A stretch of 64,000 nt of DNA from Gammaproteobacteria bacterium (GTDB lineage Bacteria; Pseudomonadota; Gammaproteobacteria; CAIRSR01), in NCBI GenBank assembly GCA_963575655.1, contig CAUYTY010000195.1, positions 1 to 64,000 of the forward strand. The letters are read 5' to 3'. The notes beneath the pieces were generated by a model, which did not search any database, had not been told where the DNA came from, and saw only the letters and a list, made by a program, of their open reading frames with translations. Of this stretch, positions 1,970-27,631 are shown piece after piece. Within the stretch, counting starts at the first letter, position 1. Every line of letters begins with the position of its first letter. The position numbers were made by a program, and so were the translations under genes.

Positions 1970-2563
1970 GAACGATCCAGACACCATCTAATACCCGTTG
2001 GATGCCTGCTTTATTTTTCGCATACATATTCGTCCTACGTCGATAAGCGGAACAACGACTCCTTATGGATGCATTAAACGCATCAGCGTGGTTGGCGTGG
2101 ATTTCCTTATTGGTAATGTTTTGGAGGGTTTGAGGATGTTCCGCGTGGGGTGTTTCGTATTTAGAACGTTTCCGGCCTCGCTTACGATTTTGTCTTCCCT
2201 TATTTTTAATTCTTATTTTAATTCCTTCGCGAAGTACTTTGGGTGGTCGTCCACGACGTCCGGAACGAAATACCTCGTGACAGATTTCGAATAATAAACT
2301 TCCATAACGGCGTTCACCGTCCGTAATTAATGTAACGTTGCCTGTCTGCTCGATCACGTTTCTAACCATCTGTACAGCATAGAAAAATAATGTACGATCT
2401 TTTTTCCGTACCCCAGTACCCAAATAAAACGACTGGCACGTTCCATCAACATAATCGTCCATCCTTCGCACTCTTCCACTGGTACATTCTTATTTGCTTT
2501 TGTGTATAGCTCATCTCCCTCAATCACTTGAGAAATAAACGTGTGTACCAATACATAGATCAT
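1965..2563 (-). pseudogene. IS1-like transposase with -1 frameshift site, partial
   Basis: Two overlapping minus-strand frames together give one DDE-type transposase: GDELYTKANKNVP, then GWTIMLMERASRFIW, frameshift, then VTLITDGERRYGSLLFEIC, then NKEIHANHADAFNASIR, then SAYRRRTNMYAKNKAG. The frames change at about 2394-2405, where the coding strand reads GGA AAA AAG, i.e. the canonical slippery heptamer A AAA AAG in the correct phase for a -1 shift, which is how IS1-family transposases are made. The N-terminal DNA-binding part that should precede GDELYTK is missing or unrecognisable (only MIYVLVHTFISQVIE), and the C-terminus runs into the hairpin repeat 1842-1969. I therefore call it a remnant, despite the intact shift signal. 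Confidence 0.7.
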
Positions 2564-2934
2564 TAAGGTTTCCTTTAGATCTGAGAATTTTATTTCCTAT
2601 TTCAATAACGTGTTTCTTGCTATTTCAAAAACTCGACACGCCGCATTAAAGCCAATTCACTCGCTTCGTGCCTGGAGTACTTTTGCGATCAAACTTATGG
2701 GGTTTCTATATTTTCCATAAATGTCCCTTTTGTCTCTGAAAAGATATTATGGCAGTTTTTACGTTCATAAAGACTCCTTCTTCCATTGTTGGCTGTATTA
2801 TAAGTTCTAGAGACGATACAGTCTTCCGAATTGCAACGAGGGTAATGAATTTTAGATGAAATTATTATTCTCTTTTAAACTAGTGCAAATGGAATGATTT
2901 ATATATTGAGGATATAATATAACATTTTCAGCAG
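2564..2934. other. AT-rich stretch without recognisable gene
   Basis: No open frame of interest and no repeat shared with the rest of the window. Base composition is clearly lower in GC than the surrounding chromosome, in keeping with inserted or decaying mobile DNA. Confidence 0.5.
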
Positions 2935-3553
2935 GTTATAGCAAGAATCAAAATAGACCAGTGCCAAATGGAGTTTTGTGTTCAAAAAGATAAGAATCAT
3001 ACTTTAGAAGAGGAGGAGTATGGAGATAATTGAGATCATGTCGCTGTTGATTCTGAAACTCGATTGGTATTGTCTGTAGTGCCAGGGAAGCGTACGGCGG
3101 GAAACTGTCTCCAAGTGGTTGAAGACAGTTAGGAAACGTACTAATGGAAGGACTGATTTGTTACTTACGTCCGATGAGCATACTCCTTACCAAACAGCGA
3201 TTGAGAAAGTTTACACAACCGAAGTAGTACAGCCTAAACGACCAGGACCAGGTCGTCCTTCAAATCCAAAGCGAGTCATGCCAAGTGACTTGTGCGTCGC
3301 CGTTCGTAAAATTCGTGAGAAGGGGCGAGTTGTGGATGTGAAACGAACTGTGGTCTTCGGTACTCTGGGTTATTGATCTTGTGGTTGGTACGCTCAACAG
3401 TCCGCTCCTTTATCAATGCTTCATTCATCTTTTCAGGATGATCGTGGAAAATGGAAAGATCGAGCACCAGCCGTGGCCGCTGGTTTTGCCAATCATATCA
3501 GGACAGTTCATGAGTGAATTTCCTTTCCGGCTCTGCCAGTTAGGTCAACGTAA
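2935..3553 (+). pseudogene. IS1/IS1595-type transposase, decayed C-terminal part
   Basis: Across several frames the DNA still reads WSFVFKK, then DHVAVDSETRLVLSVVPGKR, then KRTNGRTDLLLTSDEHTPYQ, then PKRPGPGRP, then IREKGRVVDV, then (after a deletion of the catalytic middle) DDRGKWKDRAPAVAAGFANH and ISFPALPVRST with stop TAA at 3551-3553. Lesions seen: a Trp codon changed to TGA near 3030, an early stop near 3130, a frameshift near 2965, a stop before ISFPALP, and loss of the segment with the usual ERNNGTDR motif. The ending is shared with 54124-54250, which shows it is the true C-terminus of this element. Confidence 0.7.
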
Positions 3554-3564
3554 GGCACCACCAG

Positions 3565-5415
3565 ATGATGACACCAATCAAAATTGCAAATTGTTCTATT
3601 GGTCCAGGATATCCGGTCTACTTGGTTGCCGAATTGTCCGCTAACCACAATGGTTGCCTCGAACGTGCCTTGGAGCTGATTCGCGCCGCACGGGCCGCAG
3701 GAGCGGATGCGGTGAAGCTGCAAACCTATACCGCCGATACTCTCACTCTGGATAGCAGCGGAGACCTATTTACCATTCGCGGTGGGACCCCGTGGGATGG
3801 TCGTACCCTACATGCCCTCTATCGGGAGGCTGCGACCCCTTGGGAATGGTACCCACACTTAGCAGCCGAGGCTGCCGCACAGGGACTGTCGTTGTTTTCC
3901 TCGCCATTTGACGCCACTGCGGTGGATTTCCTGGAGACTCAAGGCGCCCCTGCCTATAAGGTGGCGTCCTTTGAATTGGTGGATTTGCCGCTGATCCGGC
4001 GCATTGCTGCTACCGGTAAACCGATGATTCTCTCTACCGGTATGGCCACCTTTGAAGAGATCGAAGAAGCGGTAATTACTGCGCGCACTGCTGGGGCGCG
4101 CGACCTCATTTTGCTGAAATGCACCAGTGCCTATCCCGCTCCACCCGCAGAGATGCACCTGCGTACCCTCCCCCACCTTGCCGCCACTTTTGGCGTACCG
4201 GTGGGACTCTCCGACCATACCCTGGGTATCACCATACCCATCGCCGCCGTGGCCCTGGGGGCCTGCCTGATCGAAAAACATCTCACGCTGTCTCGTGCTG
4301 AGGGTGGAGTAGACGCAGCTTTCTCCCTCGAACCCGGAGAATTTCGAGCCATGGCGGAGGCAGTACGCACTGCGGAGCAGGCCTTAGGTGAGGTGCAATA
4401 TACCCTGACCGCTGCCGAGGAACGCAACCGAGTTTTTCGTAGATCGTTGTTTGTGGTGCGTGAATTACGTTGCGGTGAACCTTTTACCCTGGACAATGTG
4501 CGTTCCATTCGTCCTGGTTACGGTCTACATACCCGCTACCTGAACAAGATCCTGAACTGCCCAGCCACCCGGGACATCCCGCGTGGCACCCCGTTGGACT
4601 GGTCTTTGGTCGGTAATCGCGATTTGTTTAGACCTATTGCCCGCGTCGTAGGGGTAATCCAGGCCCGCTTGGGGTCTACCCGCCTGCCGCGCAAGGTCCT
4701 TGCTGACCTTCAGGGACAACCCATGATCGGACGTATCCTAGAACGGGTTGCCTTGGCCAAGCGCGTACATGCCACGGTCATTGCTACGACCACCGACCCC
4801 TCCGACGATGCGCTGGTCGAGTATGCCCAACACGCCGGGGTAGGTTGTCACCGTGGCCCCGTCGATGACCTCGCTACGCGCCTTTACGGCGCCGCCCAGG
4901 CCTTTGAAGCTGATGTGATCGTGCGGGTGTGGGGCGATTGTCCCTGTGTCGATCCCGCAATTATCGATGAGGCCCTAGAACACCTTTTAACCGAGGATTT
5001 GGATTACATCAGCAATTCCATTGCCGCAGGTCGCACTTATCCCTATGGTCTGGACTTTGAGATCTATCGAACCACGCTACTGGAACGTCTATGTGCAACC
5101 ACGATCGATCCTTTCTACCGAGAGTTTCCTTTCGAGTGGGTAATGGCACACCGTGCCAAATTACGCATGGGGATCTTGCGTCTGGCAGAGGATTGGTCCC
5201 ATATTCACCTTACCGTGGACTATCACGAGGATCTTGCGCTGGTGCGCGAGGTCTATCAGGCCCTATACCAATCTGGTAGTGCCTTTGGATGGCGTCAGGC
5301 CGTAGATTGGTTGGTACAACAACCGGAATTGACCCGTGACGTAGCCAACCTGACGCGCAATCCCGAGTACCATCAAAAATCTGCCGAACACCAGCATCGG
5401 CAAGATGCAACATAA
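3565..5415 (+). CDS. SpsE-SpsF fusion: N-acylneuraminate synthase-like plus cytidylyltransferase-like
   Basis: A 616-residue fusion. Residues about 1-285 form a NeuB/SpsE-type synthase, which condenses phosphoenolpyruvate with an amino sugar to make a nonulosonic acid: SANHNG, KLQTYTADTLTL, STGMATFEEI, KCTSAYPAP, GLSDHTLG and EKHLTL are all present. Residues about 290-350 form the SAF domain (RRSLFVV to DIPRGTPL). Residues about 358-600 are an SpsF-type nucleotidyltransferase (GVIQARLGSTRLPRKVL, RVWGDCPCVDP). In Bacillus spsE and spsF are separate neighbours in the spore-coat polysaccharide cluster; here they are one protein, suggesting coupled synthesis and activation of an acidic sugar. No other genes of such a pathway are nearby. 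ATG 3565 lies 3 bases after the end of the insertion element at 3562, and no Shine-Dalgarno is visible. Confidence 0.85.
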   Translation: MMTPIKIANCSIGPGYPVYLVAELSANHNGCLERALELIRAARAAGADAVKLQTYTADTLTLDSSGDLFTIRGGTPWDGRTLHALYREAATPWEWYPHLAAEAAAQGLSLFSSPFDATAVDFLETQGAPAYKVASFELVDLPLIRRIAATGKPMILSTGMATFEEIEEAVITARTAGARDLILLKCTSAYPAPPAEMHLRTLPHLAATFGVPVGLSDHTLGITIPIAAVALGACLIEKHLTLSRAEGGVDAAFSLEPGEFRAMAEAVRTAEQALGEVQYTLTAAEERNRVFRRSLFVVRELRCGEPFTLDNVRSIRPGYGLHTRYLNKILNCPATRDIPRGTPLDWSLVGNRDLFRPIARVVGVIQARLGSTRLPRKVLADLQGQPMIGRILERVALAKRVHATVIATTTDPSDDALVEYAQHAGVGCHRGPVDDLATRLYGAAQAFEADVIVRVWGDCPCVDPAIIDEALEHLLTEDLDYISNSIAAGRTYPYGLDFEIYRTTLLERLCATTIDPFYREFPFEWVMAHRAKLRMGILRLAEDWSHIHLTVDYHEDLALVREVYQALYQSGSAFGWRQAVDWLVQQPELTRDVANLTRNPEYHQKSAEHQHRQDAT

Positions 5416-6562: not shown

Positions 6563-6966
6563 TTGATGATACCTGCTTTCATCTCGTTGCAAACATGAGC
6601 GTCAGCTTTTGGTTTCCGAGTTTTCGGAAGGGAATCCAGGATATTCACGTATATTGCGTACTTAATTAGCCGCCTTCGTGGCGAAGTCGGCAGGCAGGAA
6701 CTCCCCTTGTAGCTCGTTCTCGTGGCATACTCCCCGGTCGAGGGGGCGTTGTCCTAGTGAAATACGGATTGTCGCCGCCTATCTCTTTGAAAAAGAGTAG
6801 AAATTGACGTAACTCTGGGCCGCATCAAGTCGCTCAGTTGGGATGTGTAACGTCACCAACTTTTCGTTGGTCCCATGGGTGCGCCGGTTAGCTTATCGTT
6901 ATGTATTGAGGAACGATATTTGCCTCAGAATGTCGTTCTAGCCCCCGTCCTGTTAGGAAGCTCTTC
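6563..6966. other. Non-coding region upstream of pssA
   Basis: No gene. In many gammaproteobacteria ilvC or other ilv genes precede pssA-leuA; nothing of ilvC is readable here. A small palindrome GCCGCCTTCGTGGCG sits at about 6670. GTCGCCGCCTA at about 6770 repeats 11 bases that also precede the omega-RNA scaffold at 21000-21011. Confidence 0.4.
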
Positions 6967-20870: not shown

Positions 20871-21010
20871 CGGTCTGTGGTTTCCTTATTTGGGAAGCAG
20901 TGATGGGAACTTATTGAGTCAGTCATTCACCCCCTCCCGTTGGGGGGGGGGGGCAGTTGCATAATTCAAGTTATGGCCTATCCATAGTTGTTATTGTTGA
21001 GTCGCCGCCT
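20871..21010. other. Spacer with 12-G tract and presumed omega-RNA guide segment
   Basis: Contains CCCCTCCCG and a run of twelve G (20942-20953), a likely slippage site, then TTCAAGTTATGGCCTATCC, similar to an R-family end. The last roughly 16 bases (20995-21010, ending GTCGCCGCCT) lie where the guide of the downstream omega-RNA should be. Confidence 0.5.
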
Positions 21011-21268
21011 AACTTTTCAACCTAGCGGAATCCATTCCGCTGGCTGAAAAGTTTGAGATTCAACCAGCCCGCCGAAAGGCAGCCGACAAGAAGTGAAGCG
21101 AAAGCGAGTCACCCAGGGATGCTTCTCCAGTCCCAGGCCCTGACGACGAAAGGAATGGCGGTCGAGAGACGGTATAAGACCCAATCCTTAGTCTGAACGA
21201 CCTTCTTGTTCTGGGCGAGGAGACCTTTACGCGAAAGCAGACTTCCGGGTAACCGGAAAGAGAAAGTA
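21011..21268 (+). ncRNA. IscB omega-RNA scaffold
   Basis: About 258 bases directly before iscB. It opens with a long hairpin, AACTTTTCA (21011-21019) pairing with TGAAAAGTT (21045-21053) around an inner stem AGCGGAAT/ATTCCGCT. Then come GCCGAAAGGC and, at 21110-21133, CACCCAGGGATG followed by CTCCAGTCCC. These elements occur in the same order in the OgeuIscB omega-RNA as I recall it (GTTGAAAGAGC hairpin, GCCGAAAGAC, CACCCTGGGAT, CCCCAGTCCC). The guide would be the 5' end, upstream of 21011. Ends of the transcript are not determined. Confidence 0.75.
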
Positions 21269-22606
21269 ATGAACCGAATCTTTGTGTTAAGCAGTACCAA
21301 GCAACCGCTGATGCCCTGTCACCCAGCACGGGCACGGGAACTGTTGCGGAAGGGTAAGGCCGCCGTCTACCGAATGCAGCCTTTTACCATCATCCTGAAG
21401 TCTCGCACCGATGGCGTAGTTCAAGACATCGCGTTCAAGACCGACCCCGGCAGCAAGACCACGGGGATTGTCTTGGTCGCGGGATTTGAGAAACACGGGT
21501 CAACGGTGATCTGGGCTGCCAATTTGTCTCATCGAGGTGCGGCCATCCATACCAACCTCGATAGCCGTCGTTCCTTGCGCCGTGGGCGTAGGGGCAGAAA
21601 GACCCGCTATCGTGAAGCACGATTCAACAACCGAACCCGTCAGGCCAATTGTGGTGGGAAATGGTTGGCACCCAGCATTAAAAGCCGTGTTGACAACGTA
21701 GCCATCTGGTACGGACGACTTAACCGGCTGGCACCGATTAGCGAAGCACATATCGAGACGGTACGCTTTGACATGCAAAAGATGGCCAACCCGGAGATTT
21801 CCGGTGTCGAGTACCAGCAAGGAACGTTGGCCGGGTACGAACTACGGGAATACTTGTTGGAGAAGTTTGAGCGGACTTGTGCCTATTGCGGGAAGAAGGA
21901 TGTGCCTCTTCAGATTGAGCACATCCAACCCAAAGCCCTTGGTGGTAGTGATCGGGCGTCTAATCTAACCGTTGCTTGCCGACCCTGCAACGAAAAGAAA
22001 GCGGCGCAGCCTGTTGAGAAGTTCCTTGTGGGTAAACCTGACCTACTGAAAAAGATTAAAGCACAAGCCAAAGCACCATTACGCGACGCGGCAGCGGTAA
22101 ATTCTGCACGTTACGCATTGGGCAACGAGATCAAAGCCTGGGGATTGCCTACCTCGTTCTGGTCAGGTGGACGAACCAAATTAAACCGCGTCACGCAGGG
22201 CTACGCAAAGGACCATTGGATTGATGCGGCTTGTGTTGGTGAAACTGGCGCGGCTGTCGTCATCCCGCCTGGACTTGTACCTCTACAAATTAAAGCCACA
22301 GGACGTGGCACGCACCAGACGGTAAAGACAGACAAGTTTGGATTTCCGCGTGGTGGTGCAGGTCGATGCAAACGGGTATTCGGGTTTCAGACTGGGGACC
22401 TGGTTCGTCTATCTCAACCGTCTGGAAAATATGCAGGAGACCATATCGGGCGGTTGGCCGGAATCCGGGCAACGGGTTACTTCGATATTCGCTCTGGCGA
22501 TGCAAAAATTACTGCACGACACCAAAACTTTACTTTGCTACAGAGAAGCGATGGCTATGAATACAGTAACGTCAGCGGAAACGTCAAAGGCCGGCGGGCA
22601 GGCTGA
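21269..22606 (+). CDS. iscB: IscB RNA-guided nuclease
   Basis: 445 residues from ATG 21269 (AGAGAAAG before it). Order of parts: PLMP domain (VLSSTKQPLMPCHPARAREL), RuvC-I with catalytic Asp (FKTDPGSKTTGI), arginine-rich bridge helix (RRSLRRGRRGRKTRYREARF), RuvC-II (HIETVRFDMQKM), HNH (CAYCGKKDVPLQIEHIQPKA, then NLTVACRPCNEKK), RuvC-III (DHWIDAACVGE), and a C-terminal domain ending FTLLQRSDGYEYS. All catalytic residues expected for a double nickase are visible. IscB is the likely ancestor of Cas9 and uses an omega-RNA made just upstream, which is recognisable here. No TnpA lies nearby, so the unit would depend on a transposase in trans or be immobile. Confidence 0.92.
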   Translation: MNRIFVLSSTKQPLMPCHPARARELLRKGKAAVYRMQPFTIILKSRTDGVVQDIAFKTDPGSKTTGIVLVAGFEKHGSTVIWAANLSHRGAAIHTNLDSRRSLRRGRRGRKTRYREARFNNRTRQANCGGKWLAPSIKSRVDNVAIWYGRLNRLAPISEAHIETVRFDMQKMANPEISGVEYQQGTLAGYELREYLLEKFERTCAYCGKKDVPLQIEHIQPKALGGSDRASNLTVACRPCNEKKAAQPVEKFLVGKPDLLKKIKAQAKAPLRDAAAVNSARYALGNEIKAWGLPTSFWSGGRTKLNRVTQGYAKDHWIDAACVGETGAAVVIPPGLVPLQIKATGRGTHQTVKTDKFGFPRGGAGRCKRVFGFQTGDLVRLSQPSGKYAGDHIGRLAGIRATGYFDIRSGDAKITARHQNFTLLQRSDGYEYSNVSGNVKGRRAG

Positions 22607-22909
22607 ACCTCAACGGCAGCGGCTTCAGAATTGCCCTCGCGTCCTCTGCTCCATTGCATTACGCAACCGGACTGGGGGGGCGTCGCACTCCCGGTGCTCC
22701 TTCTAGGAACGAGAATTTTATAACTTGTGCAATTGTAGATAGGAGCGCCGACGGCGCGATTTTATACCGGCCTGGGGCAGCGCCCCAGGAATCATTATAG
22801 GGTTGAGGACCCGTCCCATCGATTACGATACGGGCCTTCAACCCCTTTTTAGTTTCCACGCCCCAGCGGATGTAATGGGTAACAACTTGAGTTATCCATG
22901 GTCTCTGCC
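22607..22909. other. Non-coding region with terminator-like hairpins
   Basis: Holds the presumed right end of the iscB unit, a palindrome GGGGCAGCGCCCC (about 22777), and at about 22799-22852 a hairpin (GGGTTGAGGACCCGT pairing with ACGGGCCTTCAACCCC) followed by TTTTT on the plus strand, which would stop iscB transcription. An R-like end (AACAACTTGAGTTATCC) is at about 22883. Confidence 0.5.
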
Positions 22910-25209: not shown

Positions 25210-25940
25210 TCACATTCTAGATAGAAATAGGGTGTTATTTTCTTCAACTACAATCAAATCTGTACTATTCGTCTTCCAGTTTCTAAGGTTCAATGATGGC
25301 TTTTTTGGTTGCCATGAGTATGCGATAAGGGCACAAACTATATTCACCATAAAATTAGCAAGACTGCGATGACGCGTGTGTTCCAGTTGAGAAATATTTT
25401 TTAGCTGATCGTTAACGGTCTCAATTATGGATCGTTTGCGCAACATTATTTTGTCAAAATCCCCAATAAAAACCTTTTTCATATTCTTTCGAATTTTTGT
25501 AATCAATTCAATTCCCTGCTCCCATAAAGATTCTTGAAGCGCCTTTGAAATGTACCCTTTGTCTCCAAACAATTTACCATTAATAAATTTTGCCATTTCC
25601 TTCAACCCCTTACGATCGTCAATATTTCCTGGCGTAACAAGAAAAGAGACCAGCTCTCCCTGGTCATCAATAACAAGATGCAACTTAAATCCATAATACC
25701 AATCAACGGATGTTTTTCCTCTTGCGGCGAGTCCATTGAATGTTCTGTGACGAGGAATACGGCGGTTATGGCAGACACGTAATGGCGTTGAGTCAATAAA
25801 TGCAATTCCTTTTGAAGTAACGCGACGCGTGTTTAAATAGGCACACAGTGGAACTAGAACGGATTGCTCTAGCTCTACAAATCGGTTATAACTAACTCGA
25901 TTCGGAAACTCCCTACCTAAAACAAACGGTACATAACCGA
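25210..25940 (-). pseudogene. IS982 transposase, C-terminal part
   Basis: The open frame begins inside the inner element, but real IS982 sequence starts at 25940: [40 protein letters not shown] (first catalytic Asp), [30 protein letters not shown] (second Asp), [12 protein letters not shown] (Glu). Joining it to 27353-27560 restores a single frame of 313 codons. So the gene is broken by one clean insertion only and was otherwise intact. Confidence 0.9.
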
Positions 25941-27346
25941 CAATACGTTCGCCAAATTTGATGACCACAGGAAGTTAGAGGGTATACTTAGCGGCCACTA
26001 ATCCAGCTGCTCGCAGGGGAGCCGATGGACCTTTTATTTTTTCTGGCGTGTTTGGCTCCTTGCCTCAACGCTACCACTTTGCGCCGTCTAGCCCGTGTAG
26101 TGGCCGCGCTTCTGACCATGACGGGGCGGGTCACCATGCTGGGTATTTCACGCTGGACGGAAGCCGGCGGCAGTTATCGCACGGTCCAGCGTTTCTTCAA
26201 CACCCTGATACCGTGGGAAAAAGTACAGTGGCACCTCATCCGTCGCCACCTGATGCGAGTTCCCTGCGTGATATTGCTCACCGCAGACGAAGTGGTGACA
26301 CCCAAGGCGGGCCGCCATACCCATGGGATAGGCCGGTTCTTCTCCTCCATTTACGGTAAGCCGCTTCCCAGCCTATGCCATTTGTGCCTCTCGCTGACCT
26401 CGGTCAACGACCGTGTGTCCTATCCCGTGATGACGCTACCGGTAATCCCTCCGGAAAAACCTCCGACGGCTCCATCCCGGCCAACCGTCAAACGGGGACG
26501 CGGCCGCCCCAAGGGGAGCCGCAACCAAGTCCGCACTGAAGTAGAACTGACGGCATTCCAGCGATTCTTACGGGACGCGATCCAAGCCCTGCAGGTTTTG
26601 GTCGGCGCCGACCTCCCGCTGCTCTACTTCGTCTATGACGGGGCTCTCGGCCACAACGCCGGGGTCCAATTGGTCCGACACTGTGGTCTCCATCTCATTT
26701 CCAAGCTACGCCACGATTCCGCGCTTTATTTCCCCTACGAGGGTCTTCAATCCGGCCGGGGACCACGCAAAAAGTATGGCGCTCGCCTCGACTACGGCCA
26801 GCTTCCCGAGCATTTCCGTAAATTCTCCGTGGTCGAAGACAACCTCCGTACCGACATCTACCAGATGAGCTTGCGCCACAAGAAATTCACGGAACTGCTC
26901 AACGTCGTCATCATCATCAAAACGAACCTAAAAACCCTCAAGTCTGCCCATGTTCTACTCTTCAGTTCCGATCTCGCCCTCGCCTGGAATGAGCTGATGG
27001 ACTATTACTCGCTTCGCTTCCAAATCGAGTTCAACTTTCGTGACGCCAAGCAGTTCTGGGGGCTCGACGACTTCATGTCCGTCAACGAACGCCCTGCCAT
27101 CAATGCTGCCAACCTTGCCTTCTTCATGGTCAATGTTTCGCATCTCTTGAGGCGACAAACCAAGTTCGTCGGCATGAGCATCATTGACCTCAAGGCTTGG
27201 TTCCGCGCGGGAAAGTATGTCCGCGAAACTTTAAAATGGCTTCCGCAAATCCCTGAGCCAATTTCCATTGACGCCATCGTCAGGCAGGTGGCCTCTCTTG
27301 GCCGCGTTAACTTGCCAGAGCCCGTAGTTTAATGGCGAAGGTATTG
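25941..27346 (+). mobile_element. IS4-type insertion element, complete
   Basis: 1406 bases with imperfect inverted ends CAATACGTTCGCCA and (complement) CAATACCTTCGCCA, and a six-base target duplication AACCGA at 25935-25940 and 27347-27352. It is inserted in the IS982 transposase gene. An intact transposase fills it. Ends and duplication were deduced by restoring the IS982 reading frame. Confidence 0.85.
26025..27332 (+). CDS. IS4-family DDE transposase
   Basis: 435 residues, uninterrupted. First catalytic Asp in LLTADEVVTPKAG, second in YFVYDGALGHN, and the Glu in the IS4 signature Y-x2-R-x3-E-x6-K (YYSLRFQIEFNFRDAKQF), which is perfect. The Arg-rich stretch KRGRGRPKGSRN at about residue 150 may contact DNA. 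Stop TAA at 27330-27332 lies 14 bases from the element end. All required parts are present, so this element may be active. Confidence 0.9.
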   Translation: MDLLFFLACLAPCLNATTLRRLARVVAALLTMTGRVTMLGISRWTEAGGSYRTVQRFFNTLIPWEKVQWHLIRRHLMRVPCVILLTADEVVTPKAGRHTHGIGRFFSSIYGKPLPSLCHLCLSLTSVNDRVSYPVMTLPVIPPEKPPTAPSRPTVKRGRGRPKGSRNQVRTEVELTAFQRFLRDAIQALQVLVGADLPLLYFVYDGALGHNAGVQLVRHCGLHLISKLRHDSALYFPYEGLQSGRGPRKKYGARLDYGQLPEHFRKFSVVEDNLRTDIYQMSLRHKKFTELLNVVIIIKTNLKTLKSAHVLLFSSDLALAWNELMDYYSLRFQIEFNFRDAKQFWGLDDFMSVNERPAINAANLAFFMVNVSHLLRRQTKFVGMSIIDLKAWFRAGKYVRETLKWLPQIPEPISIDAIVRQVASLGRVNLPEPVV

Positions 27347-27560
27347 AACCGATATAAAAATTCTTCAGATTCCTAAAACCAGAGCAATGAAAAAGAATTA
27401 AAATTGTCATCACCTCGGCGGGAGACATGATGAATTCCCGATCGCGTTGTGGCTTTTCTTCCGGCAAAAGCGATTGGCGCCACGCTGGTATGAAAACTCC
27501 ATTAAAGTCATCAAGATCGCAAAATACCTTTGTTACATCAACGGGATTTGCGGTATTCAT
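27347..27560 (-). pseudogene. IS982 transposase, N-terminal part
   Basis: MNTANPVDVTKVFCDLDDFN, SPAEVMTILILFHCSGFRNL and KNFYI are the usual IS982 beginning. The original frame ends at the inner IS4-type element after KNFYIG. Its continuation is at 25940-25210. ATG 27558-27560 is the natural start; the open frame extends 13 codons further upstream without family similarity. Confidence 0.88.
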
Positions 27561-27631
27561 TGATGTGCTCCAGTGGTGAAGGATAATGGATACAGGCACT
27601 TATCTTGTATCTTACGTCGAACTCAGGTTGC

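What the first reader, a model, noticed from the sequence alone, without database searches (positions are those of the whole stretch)
20995..22606. Intact IscB with a readable omega-RNA and a predicted guide segment
The sequence shows a complete IscB (both RuvC parts, bridge helix, HNH) and, directly upstream, a scaffold that follows the order of known IscB omega-RNAs. The guide should be the bases just before 21011 (about 20995-21010, ending GTCGCCGCCT). Eleven of these bases (GTCGCCGCCTA, counting into the scaffold) also occur at about 6770, upstream of pssA. No TnpA is nearby, so this may be a stand-alone or domesticated RNA-guided nuclease.
Basis: partly seen in the sequence, partly recalled or inferred. 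Interest (0 to 1): 0.7.

Follow-up and report, generated by a model that had tools for sequence, protein, structure and literature searches.

The report
IscB element with many stand-alone guides
This is an intact, mobile RNA-guided DNA-cutting gene (IscB, a relative of the ancestor of Cas9) with its guide RNA; the genome also holds at least 25 guide-only copies that each point at a different site and probably share the one enzyme.

Summary
In detail: an intact IscB (445 aa, 21269-22606) lies behind a HEARO-type omega-RNA (20996-21230, E 1.7e-9, below Rfam's cut-off). GTCGCCGCCT overlaps the guide-adaptor helix and is constant in nearly all copies, so the match at 6771 means nothing for targeting. 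The guide is the host flank just upstream, about 20980-20995 (ATCCATAGTTGTTATT).

The element is 20996-22703. Its right flank starts with NNGG (19 of 21 right ends in the family); the GG is host sequence at three uninterrupted or rejoined sites, so it is the TAM. A second full copy (C186) interrupts a radical-SAM-like gene and rejoins in frame: mobile, not domesticated.

The same genome holds at least 25 stand-alone ~420-bp versions: same omega-RNA and ends, a different guide each, a terminator-like hairpin in place of iscB. Their omega-RNA half varies less than the tail (2.5% vs 5.4%; p 2e-4), as expected if they work in trans. HEARO hits number 70 here, 118 in a congener, 37 in a sister genus, and at most 3 in other sampled genomes of the class. 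The congener's closest IscB lacks RuvC-II and HNH. Stand-alone omega-RNAs are a known kind; scale and anatomy make this a variant.

The parts
20980..20995 (+). Predicted guide (host left flank), ATCCATAGTTGTTATT
   Evidence: Directly upstream of the constant repeat start; left flanks differ in every copy; guide position by analogy with OgeuIscB (PMC9640706).
20996..22703 (+). Whole IscB element, 1708 bp
   Evidence: Shared left and right ends in copies at other loci.
20996..21238 (+). omega-RNA scaffold (HEARO match 20996-21230)
   Evidence: HEARO E 1.7e-9; repeat of 243 bp in about 25 other loci.
20996..21003 (+).
   Evidence: Pairs with 21057-21064 in 18 of 18 copies.
21057..21064 (+). 3' strand of helix P1
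21269..22606 (+). iscB, 445 aa: PLMP, RuvC-I (D59), bridge helix, RuvC-II (E163), HNH (H218), RuvC-III (H316, D319), C-terminal domain
22607..22703 (+). Right end of the element, shared with the stand-alone copies
22704..22709 (+). TAM TAGGAA (NNGG), host right flank
   Evidence: NNGG at 19 of 21 right ends; GG is host sequence at C186, C201 and C220 sites.

Best explanation
The locus is an IS200/IS605-type (ISC) IscB element, 20996-22703. Its omega-RNA starts in the host flank, so the last ~16 host bases (20980-20995) become the guide. IscB loaded with it would cut the empty site, that is the guide sequence followed by NNGG. After a transposase excises the element, the cut would make the cell repair from a sister copy and so restore the element. 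The genome also holds at least 25 stand-alone ~420-bp elements with the same ends, in which iscB is replaced by a short segment with a terminator-like hairpin. Each carries its own guide and most likely loads the shared IscB in trans. Shown here: ends, guide and TAM positions, intact catalytic residues, empty sites, solo copies, lower variation in their omega-RNA. Inferred: expression, cleavage, trans-loading, retention, and mobilisation by an unlinked TnpA.
For: IscB family and catalytic residues. HEARO RNA. Common ends and differing left flanks in the copies. NNGG at 19 of 21 right ends. Empty sites: C186 rejoins in frame, C220 uninterrupted in the congener, C201 uninterrupted paralogue. Solo copies: omega-RNA 2.5% vs tail 5.4% divergence, 33/3984 vs 53/2856 singletons, p 2.4e-4, no change in a 40-nt core. 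Terminator-like hairpin in solo copies only. IscB under constraint: C228 fragment vs window dN 0.025, dS 0.12.
Against: No expression or cleavage data. HEARO score is below Rfam's gathering score. No TnpA adjacent to any copy examined; six Y1-like matches elsewhere are unlinked to these ends. Lower variation in the omega-RNA half could partly reflect a tail with a hypervariable G-run, or constraint on transposition signals. The copies are related, so the singleton test is approximate. No compensatory pair changes within the burst.
Confidence: 0.72

Rival explanations
1. The stand-alone copies are plain MITE-like deletion derivatives that hitch-hike on a transposase; their omega-RNAs are inert left-overs and only the iscB-linked omega-RNAs work.
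For: Same ends as the IscB element and non-autonomous; many remnants and contig-end copies. MITE-like elements are common in the IS200/IS605 group (established knowledge).
Against: The omega-RNA half varies half as much as the tail in the same copies, with a 40-nt core unchanged in 17 copies. The solo form keeps the whole omega-RNA, which a MITE does not need, and adds a terminator-like hairpin.
Confidence: 0.22
2. The IscB and its guides have been domesticated for host gene regulation or defence.
For: TAMs resemble gene-start signals (NNGGA is like a Shine-Dalgarno; ATGA overlaps start codons), so many guides derive from gene leaders. The congener has a nuclease-dead IscB.
Against: The window's guide has no second match with a TAM at up to one mismatch in the genome; guides of the other complete copies match only their own locus, except C201, whose omega-RNA is broken. 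Site preference is about what TAM choice plus avoidance of gene interiors would give. The window's IscB is catalytically intact and the element is mobile.
Confidence: 0.06

Closest known systems
IscB / HEARO omega-RNA system (OgeuIscB, PMC9640706; HEARO nucleases, PMC9755519; RF02033; NF040563)
   Same: Domain order, catalytic residues, omega-RNA 5' of the gene, guide directly before the guide-adaptor hairpin, TAM on the 3' side.
   Different: omega-RNA scores below Rfam's gathering score; predicted TAM NNGG(A); many stand-alone omega-RNA copies.
Stand-alone omega-RNAs reported for Ktedonobacter racemifer (Altae-Tran et al. 2021, from memory; paper not held)
   Same: Many omega-RNA loci per genome, most without an adjacent iscB.
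   Different: Here up to 118 HEARO hits per genome, two subfamilies with different TAMs in G000, exact element ends, empty sites and a terminator-like segment are resolved.
IS200/IS605 non-autonomous elements (TnpB- or IscB-only elements and MITE-like derivatives)
   Same: Precise insertion without target duplication, fixed ends, mobilisation presumably in trans.
   Different: The short form keeps the whole guide RNA and loses only the protein gene.
Nuclease-dead TnpB regulators (TldR, from memory)
   Same: The congener's 323-aa IscB has lost RuvC-II, HNH and the RuvC-III aspartate but keeps an open frame and its omega-RNA.
   Different: IscB, not TnpB; no evidence of regulation; it may simply be decaying.

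Membership tests
IscB | PLMP, split RuvC, bridge helix and HNH with catalytic residues | tested here: met
   NF040563 430 bits, Pfam RRXRR and HNH, D59/E163/H218/H316/D319
IscB | HEARO-type omega-RNA directly 5' of the gene | tested here: met
   20996-21230, E 1.7e-9 over the full model, but below the gathering score of 83
IscB | 3' TAM beside a guide taken from the host flank | tested here: met
   NNGG at 19 of 21 right ends, differing left flanks, GG native at uninterrupted or rejoined sites
IscB | RNA-guided DNA cleavage | not testable with these tools
   needs purified protein or in vivo assay
IS200/IS605 (ISC) element | Precise insertion without target-site duplication | tested here: met
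   C186 reading frame rejoined; C220 and C201 sites uninterrupted elsewhere
IS200/IS605 (ISC) element | Mobilised by a Y1 TnpA | tested here: inconclusive
   six Y1-like matches in the genome, none beside these ends
Trans-acting stand-alone omega-RNA | omega-RNA without adjacent iscB, kept by selection | tested here: met
   at least 25 loci; lower variation in the omega-RNA half
Trans-acting stand-alone omega-RNA | Expressed and loaded by IscB in trans | not testable with these tools
   no transcript or binding data

The most novel reading that the evidence does not exclude
In this bacterial family omega-RNAs have left their nuclease behind and spread as an independent guide-RNA network (70-118 hits per genome). 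In one species the network is served, at least in part, by a nuclease-dead IscB that binds rather than cuts, an IscB counterpart of the nuclease-dead TnpB regulators.
Probability: 0.07. Interest if true: 0.85.

Novelty: new variant of a known kind. Interest (0 to 1): 0.55.

Why it matters
It gives a natural system in which one intact IscB coexists with dozens of guides at mapped sites with known TAMs and empty alleles. That makes it possible to test directly whether guide-only elements spread by using a nuclease in trans, and it gives a small IscB with a predicted NNGG TAM. The contrast with a sister species (118 omega-RNA hits, one nuclease-dead IscB plus one distant intact IscB) bears on how RNA-guided networks outlive or lose their nuclease.

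Tried and rejected
Second targets of the window guide: none with up to one mismatch plus NNGG (the reversed control pattern gave more chance matches). Concatenated guides against the genome: only own loci plus the C201 empty paralogue, apart from chance-level hits. Covariation within the burst: too little variation, 0 pairs with both sides changed. Rfam at gathering threshold: no hit in the window. Altae-Tran 2021 and Kapitonov 2016 are not held, so the K. racemifer precedent rests on memory. A first codon count for the C201 fragment was wrong through strand; corrected (16 synonymous, 12 non-synonymous codons). First alignments of empty sites used too harsh a scoring scheme, redone. A first right-end pattern was too loose, replaced. 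The class-wide HEARO scan scored at most 9 candidates per genome, so its counts for G000 and G001 are capped; full counts are.

Full report
Observation. The ORF at 21269-22606 encodes a 445-aa IscB. It scores 430 bits against the RNA-guided IscB family (cut-off 175), matches Pfam RRXRR and HNH and solved IscB structures. RuvC D59, E163, H316 and D319 and HNH H218 are all present. Directly upstream, 20996-21230 matches the whole HEARO model (50.5 bits, E 1.7e-9), below the gathering score of 83.

The guide. HEARO position 1 is base 20996. The bases GTTGAGTC at 20996-21003 pair with GATTCAAC at 21057-21064, and this helix is kept in 18 of 18 copies. In the OgeuIscB structure the guide ends directly before the guide-adaptor hairpin, and 16-17 nt are used (PMC9640706). 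The guide here is therefore about 20980-20995, ATCCATAGTTGTTATT. The 11-base match at 6771 is real but is scaffold sequence and is not followed by GG at the TAM position. The true guide has no second site with a TAM in the genome at up to one mismatch.

The element. The genome (G000, 4.2 Mb, 261 contigs) gave 38 DNA matches to the omega-RNA region, most beginning at or within a base or two of 20996. Left flanks differ between insertions; the exceptions are copies inside a duplicated segment (C88, C11). The right end is ..GGTGCTCCTTC (22703), and the host flank that follows is NNGG in 19 of 21 right ends, with A next in 14 of those 19. The exceptions are C10 and C244, whose ends differ from the usual one. 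The window element is 1708 bp; a second copy in C186 differs at 19 positions, 18 of them in one 219-bp tract, which looks like gene conversion.

Empty sites. Removing the C186 copy rejoins a radical-SAM-like reading frame with no duplication, and the GG belongs to the gene. The C220 site is uninterrupted in a congener, with native AAGGAG. The C201 site has an uninterrupted paralogue about 3.9 kb away on the same contig, with native GTGG and one mismatch to the guide; the C201 omega-RNA and iscB are themselves broken by inserted DNA that carries a transposase-like ORF. The GG is therefore host sequence, the TAM.

Stand-alone copies. 19 complete or nearly complete loci, at least six further left ends at contig breaks and some remnants carry the omega-RNA without iscB. 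The complete ones are 412-422 bp. In them iscB is replaced by a ~58-bp segment with a hairpin and T-run, GCCGGGAAAGACCGGC-ATTTTT. Among 17 aligned copies the omega-RNA part differs from the consensus by 2.5% and the tail by 5.4%; singletons are 33 of 3984 letters against 53 of 2856 (p 2.4e-4), and a 40-nt core has none. This suggests that stand-alone omega-RNAs are, or recently were, under selection, which the plain-MITE reading does not predict.

Wider view. HEARO searches gave 70 hits in G000, 118 in congener G001, 37 in G002 (same family, another genus) and 0 in G003. In 229 genomes of the class only nine had any hit; outside this family none had more than three (which scored at most nine candidates per genome). 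IscB genes are few: in G000 two intact window-type, two fragments and one other type (54%; its open frame stops about 35 residues short, with a transposase-like ORF close behind). A second subfamily in G000 has 28 of 28 right flanks RTGA; in 14 of them the ATG starts an open frame of at least 60 codons. A simple explanation is TAM choice plus avoidance of gene interiors. In G001 the IscB closest to the window's is a 323-aa open frame without RuvC-II and HNH and with HWID changed to YWIN; a distant intact IscB also exists there.

Mechanism. Best supported is an IS200/IS605-type IscB element whose omega-RNA takes its guide from the left flank and directs IscB to the empty site marked by NNGG, favouring retention, with stand-alone omega-RNA elements using IscB in trans. 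Anatomy, boundaries and TAM are shown by comparison; expression, cleavage, trans-loading and the transposase are inferred. Six Y1-like matches exist in the genome, none beside these ends.

Novelty. IscB, HEARO RNA and stand-alone omega-RNAs are known (PMC9755519; Altae-Tran 2021 from memory). New here are the resolved non-autonomous omega-RNA element, its terminator-like segment, the NNGG TAM, the numbers per genome, and the nuclease-dead IscB in the congener.

Noticed in passing
L118:1755-2726 (G001:C62): 323-aa IscB in a congener with in-frame loss of RuvC-II and HNH and HWID changed to YWIN, behind the best-scoring HEARO RNA (166 bits): nuclease-dead, open frame, in a genome with 118 HEARO hits.
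   Followed up: partly
L119, L122, L125, L128, L131, L134 and others (G000 subfamily B): A second stand-alone omega-RNA subfamily in the same genome: 28 of 28 right flanks are RTGA, and in 14 the ATG is the start of an open frame of at least 60 codons, so the element sits as the gene's leader.
   Followed up: partly
L117:640-674 and 2563-4532 (G000:C201): The only guide among the complete copies with a second strong genomic match (one mismatch, TAM present) belongs to an omega-RNA broken by an insertion; its target is an empty paralogue of its own site.
   Followed up: partly
L050:914-2212: The closest IscB outside the genome (73%, Candidatus Methylumidiphilus MAG) has D59 changed to S and RuvC-III H to K, with HNH intact: a possible natural nickase or decaying copy.
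   Followed up: no
C195 vs C186 elements, element positions 1141-1359: 18 of 19 differences between the two intact IscB elements lie in one tract, suggesting gene conversion between copies; six amino acids change in the RuvC-III to C-terminal region.
   Followed up: no
L105:1707-1954 (G001:C44): The congener has an independent HEARO element of another type just upstream of the same glmU-like gene where G000 carries its C111b copy.
   Followed up: no
window 25210-27599: Transposase-like ORFs and fragments downstream of the IscB element; none was matched by the Y1 TnpA family.
   Followed up: no
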